DNA of 64,000 nt from Streptomyces sp. LUP47B (GCF_001746295.1 NZ_MJAH01000006.1:780187-844186); one strand, 5' to 3'. Counted from the first letter of the stretch, positions 34,352 through 48,142 are shown. The notes: generated by a model not told the origin, from the sequence alone. Numbers and translations are program-made.

Positions 34352-35056
34352 ACTGCAGCTTTCCTAGGTTGCTCAGGCGATTCCAGGTGCGCTCGACGTG
34401 TTCCCCGAACTGCACGACGTGGAACGTGTACTGGTGCCGGGGAGTGGGCTGACCTACGACTTCGTGGGGCGTCTCGCAACGTGATGAGGGACGTGTTCTC
34501 CTCGGTCCATGGGGGCGTATGAGACCGTCCTGACGCTCAGTTGGCGCTGTTTCCCACGGAGCGGCAGGTGGGTGAGGCTGCTCAAGCGGTGTGTGACAAG
34601 AAGGGTCGCGTATCAGAGCGTCATCCGTGACGTCGATGACGGAAGCGGCAACTCCCAGGATCTGCCCGCGGGCATCCTCGAGCCGTCACCAGCGCATGAC
34701 GCTCAGCTGCCCGTCACCCAGGTCGAGCCCGCATGCGTCGCCGAGAGCATGCCGCACCCGCGTGGCCGCCACGAGAACACGGGACCCCGTCCACCGCGCG
34801 GAGCTCGGCCCCCGCATGCCCCGAAGCCCCTGCCTCACCACGCGCGTCGGGTCGTACGCGCGTCGGCTTGCCGTTCATCACACCGCCGCCCCCGGCCTCC
34901 TGGGGCCGTACCAGGTCGCTGAGCGCCGCCAGGGCGGCGGCACAGGCGCCAATGCTTAGCGGGGGCGCATCACGGGACGACCGTCCGACTCACTTGTACA
35001 CAAGGGCTTCGCTTCGGCTTACCCTGATTTTCCGCACGGGTGACGAGGGGGACGAC
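34352..35056. other. 705-nt gene-poor region with probable gene remnants
   Basis: No intact gene. On the minus strand about 34530-34810 a coding-like reading (G-S-R-V-L-V-A-A-T, then L-G-D-G-Q-L-S-V-M-R-W, then V-A-A-S-V-I-D-V-T-D) is broken by TGA at 34686-34688; the last part resembles the end of a PAS domain of SpoIIE-type phosphatases. At 34380-34484 the plus strand reads I-P-G-A-L-D-V-F-P-E-L-H before a stop, possibly another remnant. The region is the border between the conserved core and the accessory block. Confidence 0.4.
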
Positions 35057-36064
35057 GTGGGGTTACGGGACGCTGGTGCCTCCGTATCGCCGGGCGCGAG
35101 TACATGGCGGGCCCGGCTGCGGGACCGTCAGGGCGCGGGCATCGCCGGGGCCGGCCTGCTCCTCACCGACAACACCGTGCTGACCTGCGCGCACGTCGTC
35201 GAAGCGGCCCTGCGTCTCCCTCGTTCCGACACCGGCGACCCTCCCCGTGGAACGGTACTGGTGGACTTTCCGGCCGCACCAGAGGGGGCGGAGCCGATTC
35301 CGGCCCGCGTGTCCGAGGGCGGCTGGCTGCGCCACCCACCGGCCGGTGATCTGGCGGTACTGGAGCTGGACGCCCCGCCGCCGCGTTCCGTGAGACCGGC
35401 GCCTGTCGGACGGTGCGGCACGGAGTCCGGCGCTCTCGTGTCGGTGTTCGGGCACCCGGTGGCCGTACCGAACGGTCTGTGGGCCCGCGGGCGGGTGGTG
35501 GGGCAGGGCGGGCCGCTGCCCGGATGGCGGCAGATCGACGGGCTGGACGCGGTCGGCGCCGCGGTGGAGCGCGGCTTCAGCGGAGCTGGGGTGTGGGACC
35601 TCGGACGCGGCCTGGTGGTCGGTGTCCTCGCCTCCGTGCTGACCCCCCGCAGGACGGAACCGGCCGCGGCAACGCCACGGGTCGCCTGGATGATCCCCCT
35701 CGACGCGCTGGGCCCCGGCCACATCCCGGCGACCCTTGTCGTGGGTCCGGTCACCGACTGGGCGGCGCCGCCCAGTTCACTGTGGCCACTGGTGGACCGG
35801 CTGCTGGCCATGGAGTCGTTCCGGGTGGACGCCGGAACACAACTTCTCGCCCAGCTGCCTCCCGAGATCACCGCCGGCATCACCCGGTCGACCAGCCCCA
35901 GACTGCAGCTCTACCACGTGGTCAGCCGCTGCGGGGAGTTCACCATGGGGCCGACCGCTCTGGCGCGTGCGGTGCGATGGATGGAAGGGGACACCCTCGC
36001 TGTGACGGACTTCGTGGCACAGGCCAAGAAGACCTGGCCGGGCCGGCTGGACGACGATGACTGA
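35057..36064 (+). CDS. Trypsin-like serine protease with C-terminal effector-associated domain
   Basis: A 335-residue protease and likely effector of the conflict system that follows. The catalytic triad is visible: His in L-T-C-A-H-V-V, Asp in G-D-L-A-V-L-E-L and Ser in R-G-F-S-G-A-G-V. No signal peptide is seen, so it should act in the cytoplasm. The last 90 residues (about 240-330, L-W-P-L-V-D-R-L-L to F-V-A-Q-A-K-K) look like an effector-associated domain of the EAD2 kind, which docks effectors to partner proteins. GTG at 35057 follows AGGGGGA; codon 3 is TTA, rare in Streptomyces. The stop overlaps the next gene by 8 nt. Confidence 0.82.
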   Translation: MGLRDAGASVSPGASTWRARLRDRQGAGIAGAGLLLTDNTVLTCAHVVEAALRLPRSDTGDPPRGTVLVDFPAAPEGAEPIPARVSEGGWLRHPPAGDLAVLELDAPPPRSVRPAPVGRCGTESGALVSVFGHPVAVPNGLWARGRVVGQGGPLPGWRQIDGLDAVGAAVERGFSGAGVWDLGRGLVVGVLASVLTPRRTEPAAATPRVAWMIPLDALGPGHIPATLVVGPVTDWAAPPSSLWPLVDRLLAMESFRVDAGTQLLAQLPPEITAGITRSTSPRLQLYHVVSRCGEFTMGPTALARAVRWMEGDTLAVTDFVAQAKKTWPGRLDDDD

Positions 36065-37544
36065 GCCCGCCGCGGCGCGCGACCCGAATGCCGCTGCCCG
36101 GCTGGCGGACGCCCTGATGAAGGTGTCGGTCCTGGACACCGTCGACGCCCGCAGGCTCTGTGTGCTCGACGCGATGGAACGACTCCGACTGCGCCTGTCG
36201 GTAGCCGAGTTCGACGACAAGAAGATGCACATCGTGACCATGGTGCGCGCCTTCGGCAGCGTCGCCGCCGGCTGGCAGCGGCTGACCGAGGCGGTGCAGC
36301 ACCTCGCCGACTACGACCTGCCTTCCCGTCACGCGGCTTCCCTGGCACACCCCGTGGTGCCCCCCGTCCTGGACGACCGCACCCAGGAGCAGCTCAAGGC
36401 GTTGCTCGAAGGGCTCGACCGCACGAACGTGCCCGAACTCCCCGCCGTCTACCACGCGGCGGCCGGTGCGCACTTCGGGCCACTGCCGGATTTCGTGCAC
36501 ACCGCCTGGGACGCCCATCAACTGCTCGCCCACACCAACCGGCCCACCGACGGCGCGCCCCGCACCGTGCGCTTCTTGCAGGGCCTCGCGATGGTCCTCA
36601 CGCCAGAGCGGGGCGACGCGGTCCGCTCCTGGGTCAGCCACCAGGTCCGGGCCGGCGCGCGGGGCCACCTGGAGGCGCAGCGCATTCTGGACGACTCTCG
36701 TGAGTCCGCGGGCGGTTCGGCCGAGAAGTCGGTGCGCCCCGCCTACCTGCTGATCAGGCTGGCACCGTCCACGACGTCACCCGATCGGGTCGACATCAGC
36801 TGCTGGGCGAGCAGCGGCGCGACCTGGGAGCCCCGCCGCCGCGAGCAGTGCTCCGTGCCCGCGTCCACGGTGCGCCGTCATGTCGCCACGCTGATCGACC
36901 GCGAGGAGAGCCGGCTGCGCACTCACCGGGGCAGTCTCGTGCTGGAGTTCATACTGCCGCTCTCGATGATGAACGAACCCGTCGAGGAATGGTCCCGCCA
37001 CGCCGCCTTCGGTCAGCACTCGGTCTGGGACAGCGAACTCGGCGGTCCACCCATCGGCACGGACTACAAGGTGGTCGTACGCAGCAAGGAGCGCATCGAC
37101 GCACTGCAGTTGCACCGAGTGTGGAACGAGCGCTGGGACGTGCTGTCGACGGATGAGCAGCAGGCCGGCACGCACCATTGCGCCGCGGGTGACGGCGCGA
37201 GAGCCGAGTCGCTCTACGAATACCTCAGACGCACGCCGGACATCGTCCTGATGATCCTGGGCTCTCCGCCCGACGACGACAACGGCAGGAAGGAGTTGCT
37301 CGCCGGGTTGCAGGCGGGGCTTCCGCTGCTCCTGTGGAGGCGCCGGGGCGCGTCCGCCGGGCATCCGGTCACCTTGGCCGAAGGCTTACTGGAAGGGGAC
37401 CTGCACGAGGTTCTGGACCGGCTGACGTGCTTGCGCTCCGCTCCCCATCCGGGGGACCATGACGCTGGGGGTTCCGGCCCTCGTCTTGCCGTGCTGTGGG
37501 ACGATCCGAACCGGCTTCCGGAAGTCCCGGAGCCCATTGCTTGA
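36057..37544 (+). CDS. VMAP (vWA-MoxR-associated protein)
   Basis: A 495-residue protein. The N-terminal 80 residues look like a helical effector-associated domain (V-D-A-R-R-L-C-V-L-D-A-M). The middle (about 100-215) is helical. The C-terminal VMAP domain (about 225-485) has L-V-L-E-F-I-L-P-L-S-M-M-N-E-P-V, W-S-R-H, and Y-K-V-V-V-R-S-K-E-R, the hallmark pattern of this family. VMAP is thought to connect effectors to the MoxR-vWA switch. A TTA codon lies at 37386-37388. ATG overlaps the protease stop (ATGACTGA). Confidence 0.78.
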   Translation: MTEPAAARDPNAAARLADALMKVSVLDTVDARRLCVLDAMERLRLRLSVAEFDDKKMHIVTMVRAFGSVAAGWQRLTEAVQHLADYDLPSRHAASLAHPVVPPVLDDRTQEQLKALLEGLDRTNVPELPAVYHAAAGAHFGPLPDFVHTAWDAHQLLAHTNRPTDGAPRTVRFLQGLAMVLTPERGDAVRSWVSHQVRAGARGHLEAQRILDDSRESAGGSAEKSVRPAYLLIRLAPSTTSPDRVDISCWASSGATWEPRRREQCSVPASTVRRHVATLIDREESRLRTHRGSLVLEFILPLSMMNEPVEEWSRHAAFGQHSVWDSELGGPPIGTDYKVVVRSKERIDALQLHRVWNERWDVLSTDEQQAGTHHCAAGDGARAESLYEYLRRTPDIVLMILGSPPDDDNGRKELLAGLQAGLPLLLWRRRGASAGHPVTLAEGLLEGDLHEVLDRLTCLRSAPHPGDHDAGGSGPRLAVLWDDPNRLPEVPEPIA

Positions 37545-37714
37545 GAGCGACCGAGGCGCAGCGTTACCCACTAAGGTGTGACCGACTTGAGCACCGGTCA
37601 CAGCACCGTTGCGATGTGACTTGCCGGCACGACATTCGACCGACGCCCGGGCCCTGACCGGCCGGGACAGGTCGCCCAGTGAGCCCGCGAGGGTTCCGGG
37701 AAGAGGGGGTGGCT
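37545..37714. other. Leader of the MoxR gene with an inverted repeat
   Basis: TAAGGT at 37572-37577 could be a -10 element. GTGACCG (37578-37584) and CGGTCAC (37595-37601) form a 7-bp inverted repeat directly after it. GAGGGGG at 37703-37709 is the ribosome-binding site. An internal promoter here is plausible. Confidence 0.35.
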
Positions 37715-38836
37715 ATGAGCGGCGGCGAACCGCGGGAGCCGCGGGTACCCGAGGGAGCGTCCGATTTCACTGGCCGCGCCCGCGACTGGTGGATCTACCG
37801 TGGCACGGGCGACGAGCCACGTGCCGCTGACCGGCCCCTCGACCAGTTGCCGCCCCCACCGCCCTGGCGAGACTTCGACGGTGGCCCCGTCGTGACCGGC
37901 CCCACCCCCCGCGACGACGCGGAGATCCGCCGCCGTCTCGGCGCTCCCGGCTTCGGTGTCCACGCCTCCTCGTCGGAGGAGGTCGACATGGTCAACGCGG
38001 CCCTTTTCCTGCGGCGGCCGCTCATCGTCACCGGCCCTCCCGGCGTGGGCAAGTCCAGCCTGGCCCACCGTGTGAGCCGCGAACTCGGACTGGGCCGCGT
38101 GCTGCGGTGGACGATCACCAGCAAGTCGGTCCTGAAGGACGGTCTGTACGCGTACGACGCGATCGGCCGGGTGCAGGAGGCTTCCGCGCGCGGCGCAGGG
38201 GACGGCCGGGACGCGCACGACGGTTCGTTATCCGACGACCCCGCTCTGCACGGACTCGGTGACTTCATCCAACTCGGCCCACTGGGCACGGCGTTGGTGC
38301 CCCATGAAATTCCCCGGGTGCTGCTCATCGACGAGTTCGACAAGGCCGACACCGACCTCGCCAACGACATGCTGGAAGTGTTCGAGGACGGTGAGTTCCG
38401 CATCCCCGAGCTGGCCCGTGTCCGTTCGCGCATGCCGAGCGTGACAGTGCACACCGACGACCCGGACGACACCCATGAGGTGCTGCACGGGCGGATGCGT
38501 TGCCGGGCCTTCCCGTTCGTGGTGATCACCAGCAACGGCGAACGCTCGCTTCCCCCGGCATTCCTGCGACGCTGTCTGACGCTGGAGATGCCGCCGCCGG
38601 ACGCCGACCGGCTCGCGGCGATGCTGGCGGCGCAGTTCGCCGACGGCGGCGGAGCCGAACGCTCCACGATGATCCGTGACTTCCTCTCGCGCGCCCTGGC
38701 GGGCGGCACCCTGGCCGCCGATCAGCTTATGAACGCCGAGTACCTCCGCCTGTCTCCCAACGGCCCCGACGCGGACTCCCTGAACCGCCTGCTGCACTCG
38801 CTGTGGCATAGGCTCGATGAAGTTGGTTCTGCATGA
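37715..38836 (+). CDS. MoxR-type AAA+ ATPase of the conflict system
   Basis: A 373-residue ATPase. A Pro-rich N-terminal segment (about 1-85) begins with D-W-W-I-Y-R-G-T-G, which is recurrent in these systems. Walker A G-P-P-G-V-G-K-S-S-L is at about 112-121, Walker B V-L-L-I-D-E-F-D-K-A-D near 208, sensor 1 V-I-T-S-N-G-E-R, and the arginine finger in F-L-R-R-C. Codon 172 is TTA (38228-38230). ATG at 37715 follows GAGGGGG; an in-frame start at 37679 has no ribosome-binding site. The stop overlaps the next ATG (ATGA). Confidence 0.88.
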   Translation: MSGGEPREPRVPEGASDFTGRARDWWIYRGTGDEPRAADRPLDQLPPPPPWRDFDGGPVVTGPTPRDDAEIRRRLGAPGFGVHASSSEEVDMVNAALFLRRPLIVTGPPGVGKSSLAHRVSRELGLGRVLRWTITSKSVLKDGLYAYDAIGRVQEASARGAGDGRDAHDGSLSDDPALHGLGDFIQLGPLGTALVPHEIPRVLLIDEFDKADTDLANDMLEVFEDGEFRIPELARVRSRMPSVTVHTDDPDDTHEVLHGRMRCRAFPFVVITSNGERSLPPAFLRRCLTLEMPPPDADRLAAMLAAQFADGGGAERSTMIRDFLSRALAGGTLAADQLMNAEYLRLSPNGPDADSLNRLLHSLWHRLDEVGSA

Positions 38837-41800
38837 TCCTGCCGCCCTCCCGCCAAGGCAGGGTGAGCAACGGCTCCGTGCCGCCCGTCGCCTCGCTCGG
38901 GGAGGCATGCGCGGAATGGACCGTGCACGCCGCGGGCGAGGTCGTCTGGCTGGCCGCGCAGATCGACCAGCGGCTTCGCGCAGCGCGCGCGCCACGGACG
39001 GCGGACGTGGACGAGGACCGGGAGGATACGGGGCCCGCCGCCCCGCCCGTTCCGGACATCGCGCCGGACGAGTACCCGGACGACCGGCCGGAGCCGGGGC
39101 CGACCGCCGAGGAGGTGCCGAGCTCACCGGAACCGTGGCCGGAGCCGCACATCCCGTCGGCTCCCGTGCCCGCACGCCCGGACGTCGTCGTGCCTTCCGA
39201 GCGGTACAGGCCGGCCGACGCGTTCGTCGGCCCGGCCCTCAAGCGGTCCCGCCTCATCGAGAAGGGACTGCGGCCGCTGCGGCTGCGGCTGCCCTCGCGC
39301 AGTACACGTGTCCTGGACGAGGAGGCGACTGCCGAGTCGCGGGCCGAGCAGGGAAACTGGCTGCCGTTCTTCCAGCCGGCGCCGGAGCGCTGGCTGACGC
39401 TGACACTGGTGGTCGACAGCGGTGCCTCGATGGGCCTGTGGGCTCGGTCGGCCCGGGAGTTCGAGGCGGCGCTGGTCGGCTCTGGCGCTTTCCGCGACGT
39501 GCGGGTGTGCCGCTGGTCGTCTCCGCGGGGCGGCCGACGGCATGCCGTCGTACCGGAGGAGACCGACCGCCACACGGTGTTCGTGCTGACCGACATGTAC
39601 GCGCATCACTGGCGGGACGGCAGTGCTCACCGCCAGCTCGCCCGCTGGGCCTCAATGGTGCCGACGGCCGTCGTCAGCACGCTTCCCGAGCACCTCTGGT
39701 CGTACCTGTCGACGGTGCCCCTGCGCAGTCTCCTGCGCAGCCCTGAGCCCGCCGCCGCCAACGCGCTGTGGTGGCACCGGCCGGACGACTTCGCGCTTCC
39801 CGGGTTCCCCGAGGAGCGGAAGCCGGCCTGGCTTCCCGTCCCCGTGCTGGAACTGACGCCGGACGCCGTGTCGCAGTGGGCCCGGTTCGTACGTCGCGAG
39901 CACGCGGCGGAGTACACGATGCGGGTGCTGCCGGTGTCAGCCACCTCGCCGGTGGCGCCACTGAGGCCACCCGCCACACCCCAGCCCCTGTCGGCAGCCG
40001 ACCACGCGCGTCGGCTGCGGGCCCAGCTGAGCCCGGTCGCCCTTCATCTGGCCCAGCTCGGCGCCGCTGTTCCGCTCAACCTGACGATCCTCCAGCTGCT
40101 GCGGCGCGAACTGCTTCCCGAGGCCCGTCCGTGGCATGTCGCCGAATTGCTGGTGAGCGGACTTCTGGTGCCTACCCCGGCTGGCCCGAATGCCGAGAAG
40201 GCGCCCGCGTCGGCCCGGGTCGACCTGGAGTTCGCCACCGAGGGCCTGCGGCAGGAGCTGCTGGCGGAAGGCACCCGCAGGGACACGGCTCTCGCGATGA
40301 AGGTGGCGTTTGACCACCTCTCGAACGCTGTTCGGGACGCCACCGGGGACGTACTGCGCCAGGTCCTGGACCTCGTCGCGCATCCGGGCGGAGCCGTGCA
40401 TGTTCCCCTGGACGGGGTGCGGCCATGGCTCGTTCCCGCGCTACCGGCCCTGACCGCCCTGGACGGGCAGCACACGGCCGCCGCCGCGCTGCTCCATGAG
40501 CGATTGCGCCGCTTCGAGGACCGGGCTCGCGCGCCCGCGCCGACCGACGCCCATTCCAGCATAAGCACCGATTGTCACTACAGTGATACACAGGGTAATG
40601 ATCGCAGTAGTTCGAAGTCCGACCTGGTCCATGGCGAGACCCCGGATCTTCTCACGGGAGAAGGCGCGGTCGGCGCAGACCAAGATGATGGAGGGAACGT
40701 GTCCGTGAGTGGCGTGCAGTCCGATGCCGCGACGACCAGGGGTGATGGGGCTCGGAAACCGCCACCCGTCTGGGGCAACGTGCCTCCACGGAACCGCGCT
40801 TTCACCGGACGCGAACAGTTGCTCGAAGACCTGCACCGGCGGCTGCAGGAGGGAACCACGGCCGTCCTTCCCGAGGCCCTGCAGGGCATGGGCGGCGTGG
40901 GCAAATCCCAACTCGCGGTGGAATATGTGTACCGCCATTTGAACGAATACCAGGTCATCTGGTGGATTCCGTCCGAGCAGTCGCAACAGATCCGTCAGGT
41001 ACTGGTGGAACTCGCCAGGCGACTCGGACTGGATGTCGGAACCGGTGAGGCCAACACCGCCGTACCCGCGGTCATAGAAGCCCTGCGCGTCGGCGAGCCG
41101 TACAAGAATTGGCTCCTCGTATTCGACAATGCGGAAGTTCCCGAAGCCGTTCGCGAATTCTTCCCCACCAATGGCCCAGGACGCATTCTAGTGACTTCTC
41201 GCAACGCCCAGTGGGCGACGGCGGCACGACCTCTTGAGGTGGACGTCTTCGCCCGCGAAGAAAGCCGCCAGCTGCTGCAGCTGCGTGCCCCGAACCTCGA
41301 CGACGACACGGCCGACCGGCTCGCCGAGACGCTGGGCGACCTCCCGCTCGGCATCGAGCAGGCCGCCGTATGGCTGTCCGAGACCGGTATGCCGGCCGAC
41401 GAGTACCTGCGGCTGTTCGAGCAGCAGGCCGCCGACCTCATGGTCAGCGATCCTCCGCCGGACTACCCGCTGTCCGTGGCCGCCGCTTGGAACGTCTCCC
41501 TGGAGCGCCTGCAGAAGAACCATCCGGCCGCTCTGCAACTTCTGCAGGTATGTGCCTTCTTCGCTCCGGAGCCGATCTCCAGGCGCCTTCTCACCGGTGT
41601 CCGTGACGCTCCGGTGCCGCCCGAACTGGCCGCGGCCCTGAGCGATCCGATCCGGTTGAGTCGCGCCATCCGGGAGATCAACCGGTACGCGTTGGCCAGG
41701 ATCAATCACGCCACCAACACCATCCAGCTGCACCGACTGGTTCAGCGGGTGCTGATCAACCAGATGCCCGACCCCCTCAAGGAGCAGATGCGCAACGGGG

Positions 41801-43242
41801 CCCACCGCCTGCTGGCCAAGGGCGACCCGGGCGCACCGGCCGACTCCCGCCAGTGGAGCCAGTACGGCGAACTGCTGCCGCACGTCATCAACAGCCGTGC
41901 GGTGGAATCAACCGACCCGTGGGTGCGGCAGCTCGTCCTGAACGAGATCCAGTACATGTTCACGTGGGGCGACCATGAGGGCTCGCGCGATCTGGCGAAG
42001 CAGGCGTACGAGACGTGGCGCGGCATCGACGGGGAGCGGGCGGAGCCGGTGCTGATGGCCGCCAAGCTCTACAGCGACGCGCTGCGGATCCTCGGGCACT
42101 ACCGCGTCGCATACGAGCTGGACCAGCGCACGCACGAGCTGATGAGCGAAACCCTCGGTCCCGAGCACGAGATGACCCTGGAGATCACCGGCATGCTCGC
42201 CTGGGACCTGCGCATGCGCGGCGACTTCGGCGCGGCCTCCGAGCTCGACCGGCAGTCCTTCGAGACCAGTCGGCGTCTGTTCGGTCCCAACGACCTGTCC
42301 ACGCTGATCGTGGCGCACCGCGTGGCACTGAACCTGCGCCTGACCGGTGACTTCCGTGAGGCGCTGGATCTAGACCAGGACACCCACCGCCGCAAGGTGG
42401 AGGAACTCGGCGAGAACGCCCTCTCCACCCTGGGCACCCTGGCGGGCGTGGTCGTCGACCGTCAGGAGGCCGGGGAGTACATCGAGGCCCGCGACCAGCA
42501 GCAGGACGTGGTGGGGCGCTACGAGTACAACTACGGCCCCACCAACCCCACCACAGTCTCCGGCTACCGCGGACTGGCCGTCGCCGAGCGGCGGGCGGGG
42601 CGCCACGAGGAAGCCATCGAGCTGTCCGCCAAGGCGCTGACCCTGTTCCGCAACCGGTACGGCGACAACTACCCCGACACGTTGGCTGCGTTGCTCGCCC
42701 ACTCCGTCGACGTGCGGCACAGCGGCGACCTCCCGCGCGCGCTGGAGCTGAGCGGCCAGGGCTGCAAGGGGTACGAGCGGCTCTTCGGCGCCCACCACCC
42801 GCACACGCTCGGCGCCCAGGTCAACCACGCCATCTGCCTGCGCCTCCTGGGCCGTTGCGAGGAGGCGCGTGCGATGAACGAACGGCTGCTGTCGGCGCTG
42901 GCCGAGTCGCTGGGCGAGGACCACCCGAACACCCTGGCGTGCGCTACCAACCTCGCCGCAGACCTGTACGAGTTGGGCCAGGTACAGGCCTCCGTGGAGC
43001 TGAGCACCCGCACACTCGACCAGAGCCGCCGCCGCCTCGGCGAGGACCACCCGGCCGCGCTGGCCACGGCCGTCAACCTCTCGGTGGGCCTGCGGTTGCT
43101 GGGCCGCACGGAGGAAGCCGACGACCTCCACGCGGACACGATGACGCGCTATGAGCGAGCGCTCGGCGCCGACCACCCGGCAACGGCCGCCGCCGCCGCC
43201 CACAAGCCGGCGAACTGCGACATCGACCCGATGCCGCTGTAA
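38833..43242 (+). CDS. SAV_2336-type vWA-like region fused to NB-ARC ATPase and TPR repeats (FxsT-type STAND protein)
   Basis: A 1469-residue fusion. Residues about 1-580 match the SAV_2336 N-terminal type: a Pro/Glu-rich linker, then a vWA-like fold starting L-T-L-V-V-D-S-G-A-S-M near residue 193, where the MIDAS motif is degenerate (D-S-G-A-S for DxSxS). A polar linker (about 575-645) leads to an NB-ARC unit that opens V-W-G-N-V-P-P-R-N-R-A-F-T-G-R-E, with P-loop G-M-G-G-V-G-K-S near 685 and a kinase-2 motif W-L-L-V-F-D-N. About nine TPR-like repeats (about 1050-1455) follow, each with L-G-x-x-H-P-x-T-L. The second part alone is the FxSxx-COOH system TPR protein. It completes the vWA-MoxR-VMAP set. 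Confidence 0.85.
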   Translation: MILPPSRQGRVSNGSVPPVASLGEACAEWTVHAAGEVVWLAAQIDQRLRAARAPRTADVDEDREDTGPAAPPVPDIAPDEYPDDRPEPGPTAEEVPSSPEPWPEPHIPSAPVPARPDVVVPSERYRPADAFVGPALKRSRLIEKGLRPLRLRLPSRSTRVLDEEATAESRAEQGNWLPFFQPAPERWLTLTLVVDSGASMGLWARSAREFEAALVGSGAFRDVRVCRWSSPRGGRRHAVVPEETDRHTVFVLTDMYAHHWRDGSAHRQLARWASMVPTAVVSTLPEHLWSYLSTVPLRSLLRSPEPAAANALWWHRPDDFALPGFPEERKPAWLPVPVLELTPDAVSQWARFVRREHAAEYTMRVLPVSATSPVAPLRPPATPQPLSAADHARRLRAQLSPVALHLAQLGAAVPLNLTILQLLRRELLPEARPWHVAELLVSGLLVPTPAGPNAEKAPASARVDLEFATEGLRQELLAEGTRRDTALAMKVAFDHLSNAVRDATGDVLRQVLDLVAHPGGAVHVPLDGVRPWLVPALPALTALDGQHTAAAALLHERLRRFEDRARAPAPTDAHSSISTDCHYSDTQGNDRSSSKSDLVHGETPDLLTGEGAVGADQDDGGNVSVSGVQSDAATTRGDGARKPPPVWGNVPPRNRAFTGREQLLEDLHRRLQEGTTAVLPEALQGMGGVGKSQLAVEYVYRHLNEYQVIWWIPSEQSQQIRQVLVELARRLGLDVGTGEANTAVPAVIEALRVGEPYKNWLLVFDNAEVPEAVREFFPTNGPGRILVTSRNAQWATAARPLEVDVFAREESRQLLQLRAPNLDDDTADRLAETLGDLPLGIEQAAVWLSETGMPADEYLRLFEQQAADLMVSDPPPDYPLSVAAAWNVSLERLQKNHPAALQLLQVCAFFAPEPISRRLLTGVRDAPVPPELAAALSDPIRLSRAIREINRYALARINHATNTIQLHRLVQRVLINQMPDPLKEQMRNGAHRLLAKGDPGAPADSRQWSQYGELLPHVINSRAVESTDPWVRQLVLNEIQYMFTWGDHEGSRDLAKQAYETWRGIDGERAEPVLMAAKLYSDALRILGHYRVAYELDQRTHELMSETLGPEHEMTLEITGMLAWDLRMRGDFGAASELDRQSFETSRRLFGPNDLSTLIVAHRVALNLRLTGDFREALDLDQDTHRRKVEELGENALSTLGTLAGVVVDRQEAGEYIEARDQQQDVVGRYEYNYGPTNPTTVSGYRGLAVAERRAGRHEEAIELSAKALTLFRNRYGDNYPDTLAALLAHSVDVRHSGDLPRALELSGQGCKGYERLFGAHHPHTLGAQVNHAICLRLLGRCEEARAMNERLLSALAESLGEDHPNTLACATNLAADLYELGQVQASVELSTRTLDQSRRRLGEDHPAALATAVNLSVGLRLLGRTEEADDLHADTMTRYERALGADHPATAAAAAHKPANCDIDPMPL

Positions 43243-43271
43243 GGCCGCACCGTGCCCGGCACCATCGCGCA

Positions 43272-43302
43272 CCCCGGCTGTCCTCGTCCCGGACGGCCGG
43301 GG
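43272..43302 (+). terminator. Terminator of the conflict-system operon
   Basis: A 12-bp stem (43272-43283 with 43291-43302, one T-G pair) closes a 7-nt loop 30 nt after the stop. There is no long T tract. Confidence 0.6.
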
Positions 43303-43511
43303 TCGCGGCTGCCCCAACCGACCACGGCCATGGCAGGAAACACCACCGCACGCCCAGTCAGCCCCCGCCCAGCACCACAGGGCTCCGGACAGCTCCCATC
43401 GGCCACGGGGCCGGGCGCACTACCGCACACCGGGTCAACGACCTCCTCCCACCTCAGAGGCGTGGTTGACCCCGGCGGCCGCGGAGTGGTGCGCGTCCGC
43501 GTGCGCCCCGG

Positions 43512-45410
43512 TCAACCCGCGTCCCGTACCGCCGGAGTCCGGCCGATCCAGTCGGCCAGGGGCACGGGGTCGGGGGTGGCTCTGTGGGGCGCGGTCGTTT
43601 GTTCGTAGACGGCGCGGACCAGTTCCGGATGGGCGAGGAGGGCGTGGGCGGCGATGGGTTGACCGGTTTCGGCCAGTGCGAGCCCGAGGCCGGCCCAGGC
43701 CGACGCGGAGCCGGGGTGCTTGGCGAGGACGTCCCGGTAGCCTCGTACGGCCTGGTCGGCGGAGCCGCGCAGCAGGTCGACGTCGGCCGCGGCCAGGGTC
43801 TCGGGCCGGCCGTCCTGGGTCGATCCGAGGACCGCCCTCTGTTCCAACGCGCCGGAGTCGGCCAGCAGTACCCGTCGCAGTTCGCTGCGGAGGTCGGGGG
43901 TACCGGAGTGCGGGTCGGGGCGCAGCGAGGGCCGCACCACGCGGGCGGTCTCGGGCTCCGCGCCGCACCGCCATGCGTCGGCCACGACCGCGACCTGGTC
44001 GGGGGGCAGCCGTAGGTGCCGGGCTCGCCACACCGCGCGCAGGTCGGCGGTCTCGGACCGGGCCAGCGCAAGTGGGCGTCCCGGCACCGGCTCGGCGTGC
44101 CAGGCCGAGGTCTCCTCGGCCATGCGGGTGACGAACAGCCGTCCGGCGTCGGTCAGTCCGCTCGACTCCAGCAGGGCTTCGAGGGCGCCAGCGACCGCGT
44201 CCCGCCACACGGCGAACTCGAAGTGCGCCAGGTCGGCCGGGGGACCGCCGAGCGCCCCGCGCTCCACCCGCCAGAAATCCGCCACTCCGGCGAACGCGTA
44301 GGTGCCGTGCAGCAGGCCCGACAGCGGCCTCGGGTCGCCTCGCCAGGGGGCGTAGTGGAGCGGACCGTCGTCCTCACAGAGCGGAAGCTGGTGGAGGAGT
44401 GCGTTGAGGACGGAGTGCCGTGCCTCGTGCACCAGCGTGACGGCGAGTTCCGTGGCGTCGGTCGGCAGCGACAACAGGGCGCTGCCGACCGCCTCGTTGT
44501 AGGAGGCGCTCGCGGTGCGGAACCGGGAGTCGGTCGGTAACGGCACCACCACCCGCAGGGACTCGGTCAGCAGGCTCGCCGCCCGCGGGTGGCGGCCGTG
44601 CAGGACCTCACCGGCCTCACCCAGCAACCGCCGCCAACGGCGTGTCTCGGCGCCCGCCAGGCCCGCCGTGGAGGCCTGTGCCAGGTCCCCCCGGAAATCC
44701 CGGTAGGGGTCGCCGTCCTCGAGTACCAGCGGCGGATCCTGGGGCCGGGGGCTCCACGAAATGCGGTGCGACGGCTCCCACGCGCCGGACGGCTCGCGCA
44801 GATCGACGGGCAGACTCATCCGCCGCCCGCCGACGACAAGCCCCGCCGGGCCCTTCCCCGGGTGCGGAGCGGTCAGGGTCACGACATCCGGCGACTGCGC
44901 TCCGGGGCCGTCGGCGGCGGTCGCCGGAAGCCGGAAGCGGCCCAGAGTGGGCAGCGTCAACAGGGCCCCACGGACCGGTAAGCGAATCGTTCCTTCGACG
45001 CCGGCGCGCAGGGCTCCGGCGGCCGCCAGGCAGTGCAGGTACCCGGCCTCTGCCCACAGGGGCGTCGTGGCATGGGGATGTTCACCCGAGAGCAGTCGCT
45101 TGAGCGTACGAACGGCCCAGATCCCGGTGCCGGGGTGCTCCAGCAGGTCGGCGACCACGTCCGGGCGGGCCTCCTCCACGCGCAGCAGTACCTCCAGGGC
45201 GGCTGCGGGAGGCAGGGGCGTGCCGGCCAGTGGCTGCCGCGCGGATTCCACGACGGCACGCAGCATGAGCATGCGTCTGCTCCGCTCGACGGCCCACAGC
45301 CGACGGGCGGTGCAGGGTCCCACGCGCCCGACGGCCAGGTCGTCGAGGTCGGATCTCGGGGTGCGATGCTTGCCCAGCACGGCACGCGAACCTGAGGACG
45401 GCTGGATCAT
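43512..45410 (-). CDS. aKG-HExxH-type peptide beta-hydroxylase
   Basis: A 632-residue RiPP-modification enzyme. The zinc/iron motif H-E-A-R-H lies in T-L-V-H-E-A-R-H-S-V near residue 325, with further conserved parts W-R-G-D-P-R-P-L-S-G-L-L-H-G and W-R-D-A-V. Members are 2-oxoglutarate-dependent hydroxylases of precursor peptides in cyclophane/FxSxx systems. The C-terminal part (about 540-610) has a TPR-like repeat (Y-R-D-V-L-A-K-H-P-G). TTA codons occur at 44979-44981 and 44538-44540 (minus strand). ATG at 45410 lies 6 nt after the precursor gene stop, so both share a transcript. Confidence 0.85.
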   Translation of the reverse strand: MIQPSSGSRAVLGKHRTPRSDLDDLAVGRVGPCTARRLWAVERSRRMLMLRAVVESARQPLAGTPLPPAAALEVLLRVEEARPDVVADLLEHPGTGIWAVRTLKRLLSGEHPHATTPLWAEAGYLHCLAAAGALRAGVEGTIRLPVRGALLTLPTLGRFRLPATAADGPGAQSPDVVTLTAPHPGKGPAGLVVGGRRMSLPVDLREPSGAWEPSHRISWSPRPQDPPLVLEDGDPYRDFRGDLAQASTAGLAGAETRRWRRLLGEAGEVLHGRHPRAASLLTESLRVVVPLPTDSRFRTASASYNEAVGSALLSLPTDATELAVTLVHEARHSVLNALLHQLPLCEDDGPLHYAPWRGDPRPLSGLLHGTYAFAGVADFWRVERGALGGPPADLAHFEFAVWRDAVAGALEALLESSGLTDAGRLFVTRMAEETSAWHAEPVPGRPLALARSETADLRAVWRARHLRLPPDQVAVVADAWRCGAEPETARVVRPSLRPDPHSGTPDLRSELRRVLLADSGALEQRAVLGSTQDGRPETLAAADVDLLRGSADQAVRGYRDVLAKHPGSASAWAGLGLALAETGQPIAAHALLAHPELVRAVYEQTTAPHRATPDPVPLADWIGRTPAVRDAG

Positions 45411-45416
45411 GTGGTG

Positions 45417-45626
45417 CTAGGACTCATCGCCGTCACACTCGGCGGCCAGATAGGGGCTGCCCGCACCACCGCTGGCGCTCTGGAACGCCGACCTCTCGTC
45501 CAGGTGACGTACCAACGTCCGCAACGCGTCCGCGAGCAGGGGGTCGTGCAGGGTCATCACCCCGTGGAGCCCACATCGGCTGAGATCGACCAGATCAGTT
45601 TCGAACTCGGTCGCAGTAGTCGTCAC
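45417..45626 (-). CDS. FxSxx-type RiPP precursor peptide with extended C-terminus
   Basis: A 69-residue peptide. The leader T-D-L-V-D-L-S-R-C-G-L-H and D-P-L-L-A-D-A-L-R-T-L-V-R-H-L matches FxSxx-COOH precursors, which normally stop directly after F-x-S-x-x. Here the core A-F-Q-S-A-S is followed by a further 17 residues (G-G-A-G-S-P-Y-L-A-A-E-C-D-G-D-E-S). GTG at 45626 has GGGGG upstream. It is the first gene of the unit with the HExxH hydroxylase. No radical SAM enzyme, needed to make the Phe-Ser cyclophane, is encoded in the window. Confidence 0.75.
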   Translation of the reverse strand: MTTTATEFETDLVDLSRCGLHGVMTLHDPLLADALRTLVRHLDERSAFQSASGGAGSPYLAAECDGDES

Positions 45627-45877
45627 GTCCCGGTGCCCCCTAGTCGGCGCGTCGCGATCGCTTGCAGCACATCCACAGGCTTCCTTTCATACTGACCCTT
45701 CGATTGCGTCACCGAAAGGGCACCCTGAAGCCACATGAGCCGGAAGCGGGACGTTGGAAGGGTTAGTTCAGGCCACCGCTGCGCCGCCGCGAGGGGAGGT
45801 GGGGCAGGGTTGGTCGGACATGGCGGCGGGCACAGAGAACCCGTCGGAACGACGGAGCGGGACGGGGGGACACTACC

Positions 45878-46222
45878 GTGGGTGAGTTGCTGCGTTTCGA
45901 GTTGGAGGACGGCGGGTCCGTCGTTGCCCAGATGGACCACATCGGCGGCGGGGTCGTGGACGCGACCGGCGCGTCCGACTTGGTGGCTCGGGCGACCAGT
46001 TCGTTCGAGGGGGCGTTGGAAGGCGTGCGCCGCGCGGCGGCCGTCACGCTGCGCCGCATGAGCGAGTTGCCCCAGCGCCCGGACGAGGTCACGGTCCAGT
46101 TCGGGATCCAGTTGGACGCGGAGGTGGGAGCGGTCATCGCGCGTACCGGCGCGCAGGGCCACCTCCAGGTGCAGGTGACGTGGCGCCGTACGCCTTCGGA
46201 GGACGAGAGCGACACCGGCTGA
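45878..46222 (+). CDS. Trypsin-co-occurring domain 1 protein (CU044_2847 family)
   Basis: A 114-residue beta-rich protein. The pattern L-L-R-F-E-L-E-D-G-G-S-V-V, a central helix S-F-E-G-A-L-E-G-V-R-R-A-A, and V-T-V-Q-F-G-I-Q-L-D-A-E-V-G-A-V-I-A-R-T-G match the trypco1 domain, found as a partner of trypsin-like proteases in conflict systems. It probably acts with the protease at 35057. GTG start after GGGGGGA. Divergent from the precursor gene, sharing a 251-nt control region. Confidence 0.78.
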   Translation: MGELLRFELEDGGSVVAQMDHIGGGVVDATGASDLVARATSSFEGALEGVRRAAAVTLRRMSELPQRPDEVTVQFGIQLDAEVGAVIARTGAQGHLQVQVTWRRTPSEDESDTG

Positions 46223-46224
46223 CG

Positions 46225-46437
46225 CCCGGGCGCAACCGGCCGCGCACGCGGGACGCCCGCACCTTCGACAAGGGCGGCACGCAGTACGACCGGCTCCGGC
46301 TGCTGATGGGCGACAGCGTCGTGACCTGCCTGCACGCGGACCACCGTGGACAGCGCAGGCTGTTGCAGCGCGCATTCCGACCGTCCCGCGTCACCGGTCA
46401 CACCGAACTGATGGGCACCCATTGGGCGAGAGCCTGA
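46225..46437 (+). pseudogene. Cytochrome P450 fragment
   Basis: About 65 codons read F-D-K-G-G-T-Q-Y-D-R-L-R, then C-L-H-A-D-H-R-G-Q-R-R-L-L-Q-R-A-F, the helix B'-C region of bacterial P450s, before a stop at 46435-46437. The haem-binding Cys region and the rest of the enzyme are absent. Confidence 0.65.
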
Positions 46438-46702
46438 TGAACTGCGTCCTGCTCCAGCTCCCGCCTACGACCTGCTCTTCGGGCAACCGCCACCGGGCTG
46501 ACCACCACCGGTCGTCAATCGCACCGACGGAGCCAGCGCGACAGGCTCGGAGGAACGGAATCCGGGCAGCTCCGGGGATGCCGGGCAACTCTGGTACGCC
46601 TGTTCAACCAAGCAGCGGAATCTGGACACCGCGGGGAGGTGACCACTGCACTGGCAGGCGAGGAAGAGCAGGCGAGGAAGAGAAGGGGAAGGAGCAGTGG
46701 GT

Positions 46703-47170
46703 TCAGGACGGTGGCGCTGGCCGCGAGCGTGGCTGTCGCTGCGAGGACGTCCTGCGCTTCTCGACGAGGGCAGGGGTGACCTGGGCGCCGCGGTCGGCGA
46801 TGTCGTAGGCGTCGTTGTAGCCGGGCTTGTGGTTGGCGGCCAGTTCCGCGCCGAGCGCGGCCTCGATCATCCTCAGCTCCGCTGCCCGGCCGAGTACCGG
46901 GCGCAGACGGCCGGTCAGCCAGACGACGGTGATGCCCAGCAGCGCGCGCAGGCCGGTGGCGGCGATCACGGCCAGCTGCGGGGCGGCGTCCCACAGCCGC
47001 TCGGTGATAGCCCCCTCGGAGATCAGCGCGGTGATCGTGCCCGTGACGACCAGGAGGCCGAGGGCCGCGAGGACGCCGGTCCCGATCCGGCACACCAGCA
47101 GGCCGATGATCGCCGCCGCGGTCCACGCGCCAGACCCTCTGTGCCGAGTGCGGCACAAGCGAGGGCACAC
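46703..47170 (-). CDS. Hypothetical membrane protein (155 aa)
   Basis: Two hydrophobic segments (about residues 17-50 and 68-88) and a soluble C-terminal tail with K-P-G-Y-N-D-A-Y-D-I-A-D-R-G-A-Q-V-T. The tail looks evolutionarily constrained, so a real protein is likely. The GTG start at 47170 is uncertain; no good ribosome-binding site is seen and the gene may be 5'-truncated. No family is recognised. Confidence 0.45.
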   Translation of the reverse strand: MCPRLCRTRHRGSGAWTAAAIIGLLVCRIGTGVLAALGLLVVTGTITALISEGAITERLWDAAPQLAVIAATGLRALLGITVVWLTGRLRPVLGRAAELRMIEAALGAELAANHKPGYNDAYDIADRGAQVTPALVEKRRTSSQRQPRSRPAPPS

Positions 47171-48142
47171 GCCGCCCCATGGCGCGGGAGGTCAGCAGGG
47201 AGCCTCCACTCGCCGCGGTAGAGGCATCCTCCTCTCGAACACCGGCTTCCTGCGGATCGTCATCCGGCGCGGTCCCTATCAAACACACGTCATTCGGTCG
47301 TGCTGGGGAGCCCGCTGTTTCCTGCGTCAGAGAACCCCGCGGGCGTGGGACCCCTGGCCTGGCTTGGAACGGATGCGGACAGGAAATGGCCGAAACGTCG
47401 ACACCGCCCAACAGCGTGCGGCGGGCCATCACGGTCGCCCCTCCTGGCCGGGATCTGGTTCGCCTGCAGCAGCCATGGTGGCTCACACCTGCGGGCGCGA
47501 GGGTCAGCCCGGTGAGGTGTTGCCTTGGTGCGGTGGACCAGGGGGATGCGCCGAGGGGGCAGTAGAAGGTCCAGAAGCCTTCGGGGAGGTAGGCAGGGTG
47601 CACCATTGCGTTCTCCCTTTGCGATGATCCAACGGCGTGGGAGACCGGTGGGCGCTTCGACATCAGCGGTGCCCCTGATGGGTCAGTGGTCGCGGCGGGT
47701 GATCAGGTCGGGTGAGCCGCCAGCTCTGTCGAGGTCGACTTCCTTGGGCGCCGGCCGATCGATCCGATGTACCGGACGGCGGTTGACCGCATGGGCTATG
47801 GCAGGGGCTCGTCTCTCGGCCATGTGCTCGACCCGCAGCTGGACTCTTTCACCAAATGCGTCCCGGTCGGGTGAAGGCTGGCGAGTGCTGCGTCTATCCA
47901 CCGGCGGAGGGAGCGACCATACCGGTAATGGGTCATCCCGAGGTAAAGGGTCTCCGTGTGAACCCGCCGATGACCGCCGCACATTGGCCAGGTCCACTCC
48001 GCCGACCAGCAGGCCCGGGCCCCGCGAGGTTGTCGCCAGCCCTGCCGTGGTCGTCGCCACGCCGCTCCGACGCACCAGAAGGCACCCGCGGCCGGTTCGG
48101 TCACCACGTGGGCCGCGAGTAGGCGTCGTACGAGCTGAGCGG
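47171..48142. other. Gene-remnant region
   Basis: No intact gene. On the minus strand at 47601 an ATG with a good GGGAGA ribosome-binding site starts a reading M-V-H-P-A-Y-L-P-E-G-F-W that soon loses coding character. At about 47690-47990 (minus) a coding-like stretch (H-T-E-T-L-Y-L-G-M-T-H-Y-R-Y-G-R-S-L-R-R, then E-H-M-A-E-R-R-A-P-A) changes frame in the middle. These look like decayed genes. Confidence 0.4.

What the first reader, a model, noticed from the sequence alone, without database searches (positions are those of the whole stretch)
35057..43242. Four-gene ternary conflict-type system with a proteolytic effector
Protease-EAD, VMAP, MoxR AAA+ and vWA-like genes lie in tight order, with an 8-nt overlap, a 170-nt gap and a 4-nt overlap. 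This fits the architecture of vWA-MoxR-VMAP systems proposed as NTP-dependent immune or self-recognition switches. Here the vWA part is fused in one 1469-residue chain to an NB-ARC/TPR module that elsewhere is a separate FxSxx-system gene, and its MIDAS is degenerate (D-S-G-A-S). The fusion merges the sensor, the switch ATPase and the vWA scaffold. The sequence directly shows the motifs; the immune role is inference.
Basis: partly seen in the sequence, partly recalled or inferred. Interest (0 to 1): 0.85.

Follow-up and report, generated by a model that had tools for sequence, protein, structure and literature searches.

The report
Peptide-linked VMAP conflict system, Streptomyces
This seven-gene Streptomyces locus belongs to a published but untested class of predicted bacterial immune or cell-death switches; the fusion that looked new is standard for its subtype, while a peptide, a peptide-modifying enzyme and a protease partner next door, missed at first reading, complete the system.

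Summary
Profile searches confirm trypsin-EAD2, EAD2-VMAP, MoxR and a 1469-residue vWA-NB-ARC-TPR chain at the stated coordinates. The locus is larger than reported: it also holds an HExxH peptide-modifying enzyme (43512-45410, -), a 69-residue precursor-like peptide (45417-45626, -) and Trypco1 (45878-46222, +). Kaur et al. 2020 (PMC7159879) already describe this subtype: VMAP systems with a peptide-processing arm carry the AP-ATPase-TPR fused to vWA when the peptide is of RxD or acidic type. My survey found the fusion at 99 loci in more than a dozen actinobacterial genera. The 'degenerate MIDAS' is family-wide and both metal-binding aspartates are kept. The comparison adds something: NB-ARC-TPR, HExxH and peptide stay constant, while the EAD2-linked enzyme is swapped (trypsin, caspase-like, PNP-like, TIR, hydrolase). 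Minimal versions join EAD2-VMAP-M0 straight to NB-ARC-TPR without vWA, MoxR or VMAP-C. This favours 'vWA-side sensor, EAD2-side effector' (Dore et al. 2024) over Kaur's opposite direction. The HExxH enzyme, published as a peptidase, now belongs to an alpha-ketoglutarate hydroxylase family. The immune role is still inference.

The parts
35057..36064 (+). Trypsin-like protease with C-terminal EAD2 (335 aa from GTG; triad-like motifs TCAHVV, GDLAVLELD, GFSGAG): predicted effector
   Evidence: Pfam Trypsin_2 and EAD2; motifs; GAGGGGG ribosome-binding-like site upstream of the GTG
36057..37544 (+). VMAP: EAD2 - VMAP-M0 - VMAP-C (495 aa)
   Evidence: Pfam VMAP-C 1.7e-37, VMAP-M0 4e-15, EAD2 1.2e-8; only VMAP-C in the genome; AF2 model pLDDT 87
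37715..38836 (+). MoxR AAA+ ATPase (373 aa from ATG; alternative GTG at 37679); N-terminal WWIYRG and PPWRDF motifs, Walker A GPPGVGKS, Walker B VLLIDEFD
   Evidence: Pfam AAA_5; motifs match those Kaur et al. give for this MoxR class
38833..43242 (+). 1469-aa chain: vWA region (SAV_2336 N-terminal, residues 36-498) - NB-ARC (661-831) - DUF7779 - TPR repeats; predicted sensor/switch
   Evidence: NCBIfam SAV_2336_NTERM and FxSxx_TPR; Pfam NB-ARC, DUF7779, TPR; Walker A GMGGVGKS 685, Walker B LLVFDN
43512..45410 (-). HExxH peptide-modifying enzyme (mod_HExxH, 632 aa; HEARH 328, APWRGDPRP 354), convergent to the fusion gene
   Evidence: TIGR04267 6e-45; HExxH and PWRxDPRP conserved across relatives; relatives with solved structures 22nu/22ob and ChlH 8s5f; only copy in the genome
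45417..45626 (-). 69-aa precursor-like peptide (GTG start), upstream of and codirectional with the HExxH gene; leader ETDLVDLS, C-terminal GGAGSPYLAAECDGDES
   Evidence: Homologues next to HExxH genes in most relatives with conserved leader; no Pfam/NCBIfam model matches it
45878..46222 (+). Trypco1 (trypsin-co-occurring domain 1, 114 aa), divergent from the peptide gene
   Evidence: Pfam PF19493 1.6e-25; NCBIfam CU044_2847 family
34355..48140 (.). Segment present here and absent from relative G009, where 2.47 kb of unrelated DNA lies between the same flanks
   Evidence: tblastn and blastn of flanks against L105

Best explanation
It is a VMAP ternary conflict system of the peptide-associated subtype (shown by sequence). 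Proposed mechanism (inferred): the small peptide is made in the cell and oxidised, probably hydroxylated, by the HExxH enzyme. The NB-ARC-TPR half of the 1469-residue chain senses an intruder, or the loss or change of that modified self-peptide, and switches by nucleotide exchange. The vWA half passes the change to the MoxR ring, which remodels VMAP. VMAP, through EAD2-EAD2 contact, then assembles and unleashes the trypsin-EAD2 protease (with Trypco1 as its partner), which cleaves cell proteins and stops growth or kills the cell. Shown here: the parts, their conserved arrangement and the swapping of the EAD2 enzyme. Inferred: direction of signalling, peptide modification, trigger and outcome.
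For: All seven parts are identified by profiles or conserved homology. In the non-redundant survey, 99 fusion loci and 10 loci with NB-ARC-TPR but no vWA all have HExxH (mostly selected through HExxH). Among 40 VMAP loci chosen without a convergent HExxH, 29 have none of NB-ARC, HExxH or peptide, and 4 show the separate FxSxx-type arrangement. The EAD2-linked enzyme varies at fusion loci: trypsin 38, caspase-like 13, PNP 8, TIR 5, TCAD9-like 3, hydrolase 2, unknown 6; the caspase-like fold is supported by a model matching MALT1/metacaspases (E 6e-7). Minimal systems L129, L186, L188 and L189 fuse EAD2 and a VMAP-M0-like region directly to NB-ARC-TPR, lack vWA, MoxR and VMAP-C, and pair with PNP-EAD2, HExxH and an RxD peptide. 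L163 joins NB-ARC-TPR and HExxH in one 1623-codon frame. In many relatives trypsin-EAD2 sits in the peptide/HExxH operon. The segment is present or absent at a fixed chromosomal site.
Against: No experiment in the papers I could search shows phage defence or cell death by any VMAP system. The window peptide lacks the RxD end of many relatives and has no run of four acidic residues, so it fits none of the published peptide types strictly. PADLOC models find no known defence system. EAD2 contact, peptide modification and peptide recognition are untested. The loci were gathered mainly through HExxH, so its co-occurrence rate is not an unbiased estimate.
Confidence: 0.55

Rival explanations
1. Kaur et al.'s direction: VMAP senses the invader, MoxR activates the VMAP-side protease, and trypsin cleaves the vWA chain to release NB-ARC-TPR as the effector.
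For: Published proposal (as summarised by Dore et al.); Kaur et al. class EAD2 enzymes as signalling components and AP-ATPase-TPR as effector; trypsin is present here.
Against: In sibling systems the EAD2 enzyme is TIR, PNP-like or a hydrolase, which would not cleave the vWA chain. Minimal systems have no vWA chain to cleave. The vWA-fused part is constant within this subtype, whereas effectors usually vary.
Confidence: 0.2
2. A self-recognition, developmental or stress switch rather than antiviral defence: the modified peptide reports cell state (oxygen, iron, alpha-ketoglutarate) or kin identity, and the protease acts in programmed lysis or differentiation.
For: The peptide-modifying enzyme belongs to an Fe/alpha-ketoglutarate oxygenase family; hosts are actinomycetes, mostly filamentous; peptide cores differ between loci while leaders are conserved. 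No transporter is seen among the cassette genes.
Against: Presence/absence at a fixed site and swapping of TIR, PNP-like and caspase-like enzymes look like conflict biology.
Confidence: 0.2
3. The HExxH enzyme is a metallopeptidase that cuts the small protein to release a toxic or signalling C-terminal peptide, as Kaur et al. wrote (a rival for one step, compatible with either direction of signalling).
For: HExxH is the zincin motif, and the HExxH enzyme PflC shows hydrolytic cleavage under some conditions and oxidative cleavage under others (PMC12636437).
Against: The nearest solved or characterised relatives, ChlH and the FxsB C-terminal domain, belong to the alpha-ketoglutarate-dependent hydroxylase family and share HExxH and PWRxDxRP with this enzyme.
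Confidence: 0.15

Closest known systems
VMAP ternary systems with a peptide-processing arm, RxD/acidic subtype (Kaur et al. 2020, PMC7159879)
   Same: VMAP-MoxR-vWA order; AP-ATPase-TPR fused to vWA; HExxH gene plus small peptide; EAD2 pair; trypsin with Trypco1
   Different: The peptide ends in GGxGSPY...CDGDES, neither RxD nor four contiguous acidic residues; HExxH is now classed as an oxygenase, not a peptidase
FxSxx-COOH system (FxsA/FxsB/FxSxx_TPR; NCBIfam NF040586, TIGR04269)
   Same: NB-ARC-TPR domain (888 bits); a small peptide gene; HExxH domain related to the FxsB C-terminal extension
   Different: No C-terminal FxSxx motif and no radical SAM gene here; the same genome has a separate FxSxx system on contig 12
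DGR-diversified MoxR ternary systems (Dore et al. 2024, PMC10907252)
   Same: vWA-fused putative sensor, MoxR relay and trypsin-type effector on the VMAP side, in the authors' model
   Different: Sensor is NB-ARC-TPR instead of a C-type lectin; a peptide arm is present; I did not look for a retroelement
ChlH-type alpha-ketoglutarate HExxH peptide hydroxylases (PDB 8s5f)
   Same: HExxH and PWRxDxRP..GLLH motifs
   Different: Distant in sequence outside that region; the window enzyme has a different N-terminal region and a TPR-like C-terminal stretch, and sits beside a conflict system, not in a known natural-product cluster

Membership tests
VMAP ternary system | VMAP-C domain | tested here: met
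   PF20028 1.7e-37; 8.1e-38 in genome search
VMAP ternary system | Gene order VMAP, MoxR, vWA 5' to 3' | tested here: met
   36057-43242; order as defined by Kaur et al.
VMAP ternary system | MoxR N-terminal motifs WxhapG and PsWRxa | tested here: met
   WWIYRG at 25 and PPWRDF at 49, matched by eye; definition
VMAP ternary system | vWA with the two metal-binding aspartates | tested here: met
   D of VVDSGAS (starts 193) and D of LTDMYAHH (starts 252), conserved in all 58 proteins aligned
VMAP ternary system | Matching EAD on VMAP and on the adjacent enzyme | tested here: met
   EAD2 on both
VMAP ternary system | Trypco gene near a trypsin-containing system | tested here: met
   Trypco1 at 45878-46222
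Peptide-associated VMAP subtype | AP-ATPase-TPR fused to vWA, with HExxH gene and small peptide gene | tested here: met
   rule
Peptide-associated VMAP subtype | Peptide of RxD type or with four contiguous acidic residues | tested here: not met
   C-terminus SPYLAAECDGDES. 35 of 103 relatives are RxD, so this is a sequence subtype within the family rather than a strict published peptide type
FxSxx-COOH system | C-terminal FxSxx motif on the peptide | tested here: not met
   Sequence ends ...CDGDES; FQSAS is internal
FxSxx-COOH system | Radical SAM/SPASM FxsB in the cassette | tested here: not met
   None among the cassette and neighbouring genes scanned; FxsB is on contig 12
Alpha-ketoglutarate HExxH hydroxylase | Sequence family TIGR04267 with intact HExxH | tested here: met
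   153 bits against cut-off 40; HEARH
Alpha-ketoglutarate HExxH hydroxylase | Fe(II)/alpha-ketoglutarate-dependent peptide oxidation | not testable with these tools
   Needs in vitro reconstitution
Antiphage defence system | Protects against phage | not testable with these tools
   No PADLOC system match; no challenge data

The most novel reading that the evidence does not exclude
NB-ARC-TPR is the receptor for an intracellular peptide whose oxidation by the HExxH enzyme marks it as 'self' (or licenses it), and EAD2 contact is the output socket into which different death enzymes are plugged. VMAP-C, MoxR and vWA would then be an optional amplifier, as the minimal EAD2-VMAP-M0-NB-ARC-TPR systems suggest. 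That would be an immune guard keyed to a post-translationally modified self-peptide.
Probability: 0.25. Interest if true: 0.8.

Novelty: new member of a known kind. Interest (0 to 1): 0.45.

Why it matters
VMAP systems are common in Streptomyces (243 of 296 genomes), but I found no published experiment on any of them. The two published models point in opposite directions. The comparison here (constant receptor and peptide arm, swapped EAD2 enzymes, minimal systems without vWA/MoxR/VMAP-C) gives a concrete reason to prefer one, and the minimal four-gene versions would be simple test objects. It also corrects a step in the published model: the 'metallopeptidase' belongs to a peptide hydroxylase family.

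Tried and rejected
Fusion as a rare event: rejected, 99 deduplicated loci. Degenerate MIDAS as special: rejected. RxD peptide as MIDAS ligand: disfavoured, because minimal systems without vWA still have RxD peptides. Trypsin as the peptide's maturation protease: disfavoured, because relatives with TIR, PNP-like or hydrolase enzymes keep the peptide and HExxH. VMAP-C as a dead CHAT/caspase fold: the AF2 model's top PDB matches are Craspase TPR-CHAT/Csx29 and separase, but none reaches E 1e-3, TM is 0.2-0.3 at about 20 A rmsd, and profile comparison gives no support; kept only as a lead. The script ended in an error before its shuffle control, and the first CHAT alignment contained antisense frames. 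MadB membership: 64 bits against a cut-off of 475, rejected.

Full report
What is there. Gene 1 is Trypsin_2 plus EAD2. Gene 2 is EAD2, VMAP-M0 and VMAP-C. Gene 3 is a MoxR-type AAA+ ATPase. Gene 4 joins the SAV_2336/vWA region (residues 36-498) to a complete FxSxx_TPR-type NB-ARC-DUF7779-TPR module (650-1468, 888 bits).

The locus is longer than reported. Convergent to gene 4 is a 632-aa HExxH enzyme (43512-45410, TIGR04267, 153 bits). Just upstream of it on the same strand is a 69-aa peptide gene (45417-45626). Divergent from that is Trypco1 (45878-46222). In the window's genome, VMAP-C and mod_HExxH each occur only once, both here. The genus is Streptomyces by inference: the 'same genus' genome G032 has a 28,908-base contig with the same HExxH match as NZ_LIPP01000312.1 of Streptomyces aurantiacus.

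It is a known kind. Kaur et al. 2020 (PMC7159879) report that about 20% of actinobacterial VMAP systems carry a peptide-processing arm, and that the AP-ATPase-TPR is then fused directly to vWA when the peptide is of RxD or acidic type, but is a separate gene in the FxSxx type. I tested this by fetching neighbourhoods. In the genus, 243 of 296 genomes have VMAP-C. The gene order trypsin-EAD2 (or another EAD2 protein), VMAP, MoxR, vWA-NB-TPR, with convergent HExxH and peptide, recurs throughout. A profile scan of GTDB genomes gave 78 loci from Streptomyces, Actinoplanes, Amycolatopsis, Micromonospora, Frankia, Lentzea, Saccharothrix and others, 63 of them with the fusion. After removing duplicates there are 99 fusion loci, 10 loci with NB-TPR but no vWA, and 15 with vWA but no NB-ARC. 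Of 40 further VMAP loci chosen because no convergent HExxH was listed, 29 had no NB-ARC, HExxH or peptide; 4 had HExxH and a separate NB-TPR gene, the FxSxx arrangement; 2 had vWA-NB without TPR or HExxH; the rest were truncated or mixed. Loci were picked largely through HExxH and through top-scoring hits, so these are descriptive counts, not unbiased rates.

The 'degenerate MIDAS'. Across 58 vWA proteins the strand-1 aspartate and the strand-4 aspartate are always present. The third position of DxSxS is G, H, S, A, P and other residues across the family. The window protein is typical.

The peptide arm. Peptide homologues share a leader, roughly ES.LVDLSGVSLEALRS, and differ in their C-terminal core. 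Of 103 peptide frames, 35 end in or near RxD. Others end in forms such as GGYNPQRDE or ISTIGGSDGS. The window and its nearest relatives have GG..SPY followed by CD and acidic residues, so the window peptide does not strictly meet either published definition. The HExxH enzyme keeps HExxH and APWRxDPRP like its relatives. It is related to the solved chains 22nu/22ob (named radical SAM core domain-containing protein; 280 bits by profile; by its sequence probably an FxsB C-terminal domain) and to ChlH (8s5f), sharing the PWRxDxRP motif. This family has been shown to be alpha-ketoglutarate-dependent, mostly hydroxylating and sometimes cleaving oxidatively (PMC12636437; PMC13060819). The 'metallopeptidase' step in the 2020 model therefore needs revision.

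Direction of signalling. Two models are in print. Kaur et al.: VMAP senses, MoxR activates the VMAP-side peptidase, which frees the vWA-fused effector. Dore et al. 2024 (PMC10907252): the vWA-fused module senses, and the signal activates the VMAP-side effector. My comparison bears on this. Within the subtype, the vWA-fused module and the peptide arm stay constant while the EAD2-linked enzyme changes: trypsin at 38 fusion loci, caspase-like at 13, PNP-superfamily at 8, TIR at 5, TCAD9-like at 3, alpha/beta-hydrolase at 2, unknown at 6. The caspase-like group has GGHG and DAC motifs, and a predicted model whose best PDB matches are MALT1 and metacaspases (E 6e-7). TIR and PNP enzymes would not cleave the vWA chain. 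Four loci (L129, L186, L188, L189) dispense with vWA, MoxR and VMAP-C: one protein carries EAD2, a VMAP-M0-like region (above Pfam cut-off in two of four, weaker in the others), NB-ARC and TPR, next to PNP-EAD2, HExxH and an RxD peptide. In L163 an NB-ARC-TPR module (284.6 bits, just under the 300 cut-off) and HExxH share one 1623-codon open frame. Together these favour NB-ARC-TPR as switch and sensor, EAD2 as output, and the peptide/HExxH pair as tied to NB-ARC-TPR rather than to vWA.

Mobility. In relative G009 the same flanking genes (an RlmD-like methyltransferase on the left; xre, adh, sdr, cyclophilin-like, mfs and sdr genes on the right, mostly 85-93% identical) enclose 2.47 kb of unrelated DNA in place of 13.8 kb. 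The system is thus gained or lost at a fixed site, or replaced there, as is usual for conflict modules.

What is not shown. No phage or cell-death experiment on a VMAP system turned up in the searchable papers. Altae-Tran et al. report vWA-MoxR-VMAP domains beside type III CRISPR loci (PMC10910872), which is supportive context only. PADLOC finds no known defence system. The trigger, the peptide's modification, its receptor and the protease's target are all inferred.

Noticed in passing
window 36057-37544 (VMAP model mcc9fa6bd2d04): The top 12 PDB matches of the VMAP AF2 model (pLDDT 87) are Craspase TPR-CHAT/Csx29 and separase (best E 1.7e-3, TM 0.2-0.3). There is no profile support and no conserved Cys: only a lead that VMAP-C might be a dead CHAT/separase-like fold.
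   Followed up: partly
L129:13655-17092, L186:11755-15135, L188:13246-16680, L189:13349-16813: Minimal EAD2-VMAP-M0-NB-ARC-TPR proteins next to PNP-EAD2, HExxH and RxD peptide genes, without vWA, MoxR or VMAP-C.
   Followed up: partly
L163:7046-11914: NB-ARC-TPR and HExxH in a single 1623-codon frame, with a stretch between them that resembles the small peptide (Streptomyces olivochromogenes).
   Followed up: partly
L045, L046, L051, L128, L131, L136, L140, L143, L151, L161: Two peptide/HExxH pairs flank one trypsin-EAD2 gene; one peptide is RxD-like and the other ends in YNPQRDE-like sequence.
   Followed up: no
L101 (G000:C12:274500-294490): The same genome has a separate FxSxx system: MinD-like NB-ARC-TPR, FxsB radical SAM with lost HExxH, and an AAC(3)-like acetyltransferase gene between them.
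   Followed up: partly
L105:3196-5666: At the site where the window has the system, relative G009 carries unrelated DNA with a frame that looks like glycoside hydrolase sequence (unverified).
   Followed up: no
window 46703-47170 (-): Frame of about 155 aa with no Pfam match inside the variable segment.
   Followed up: no
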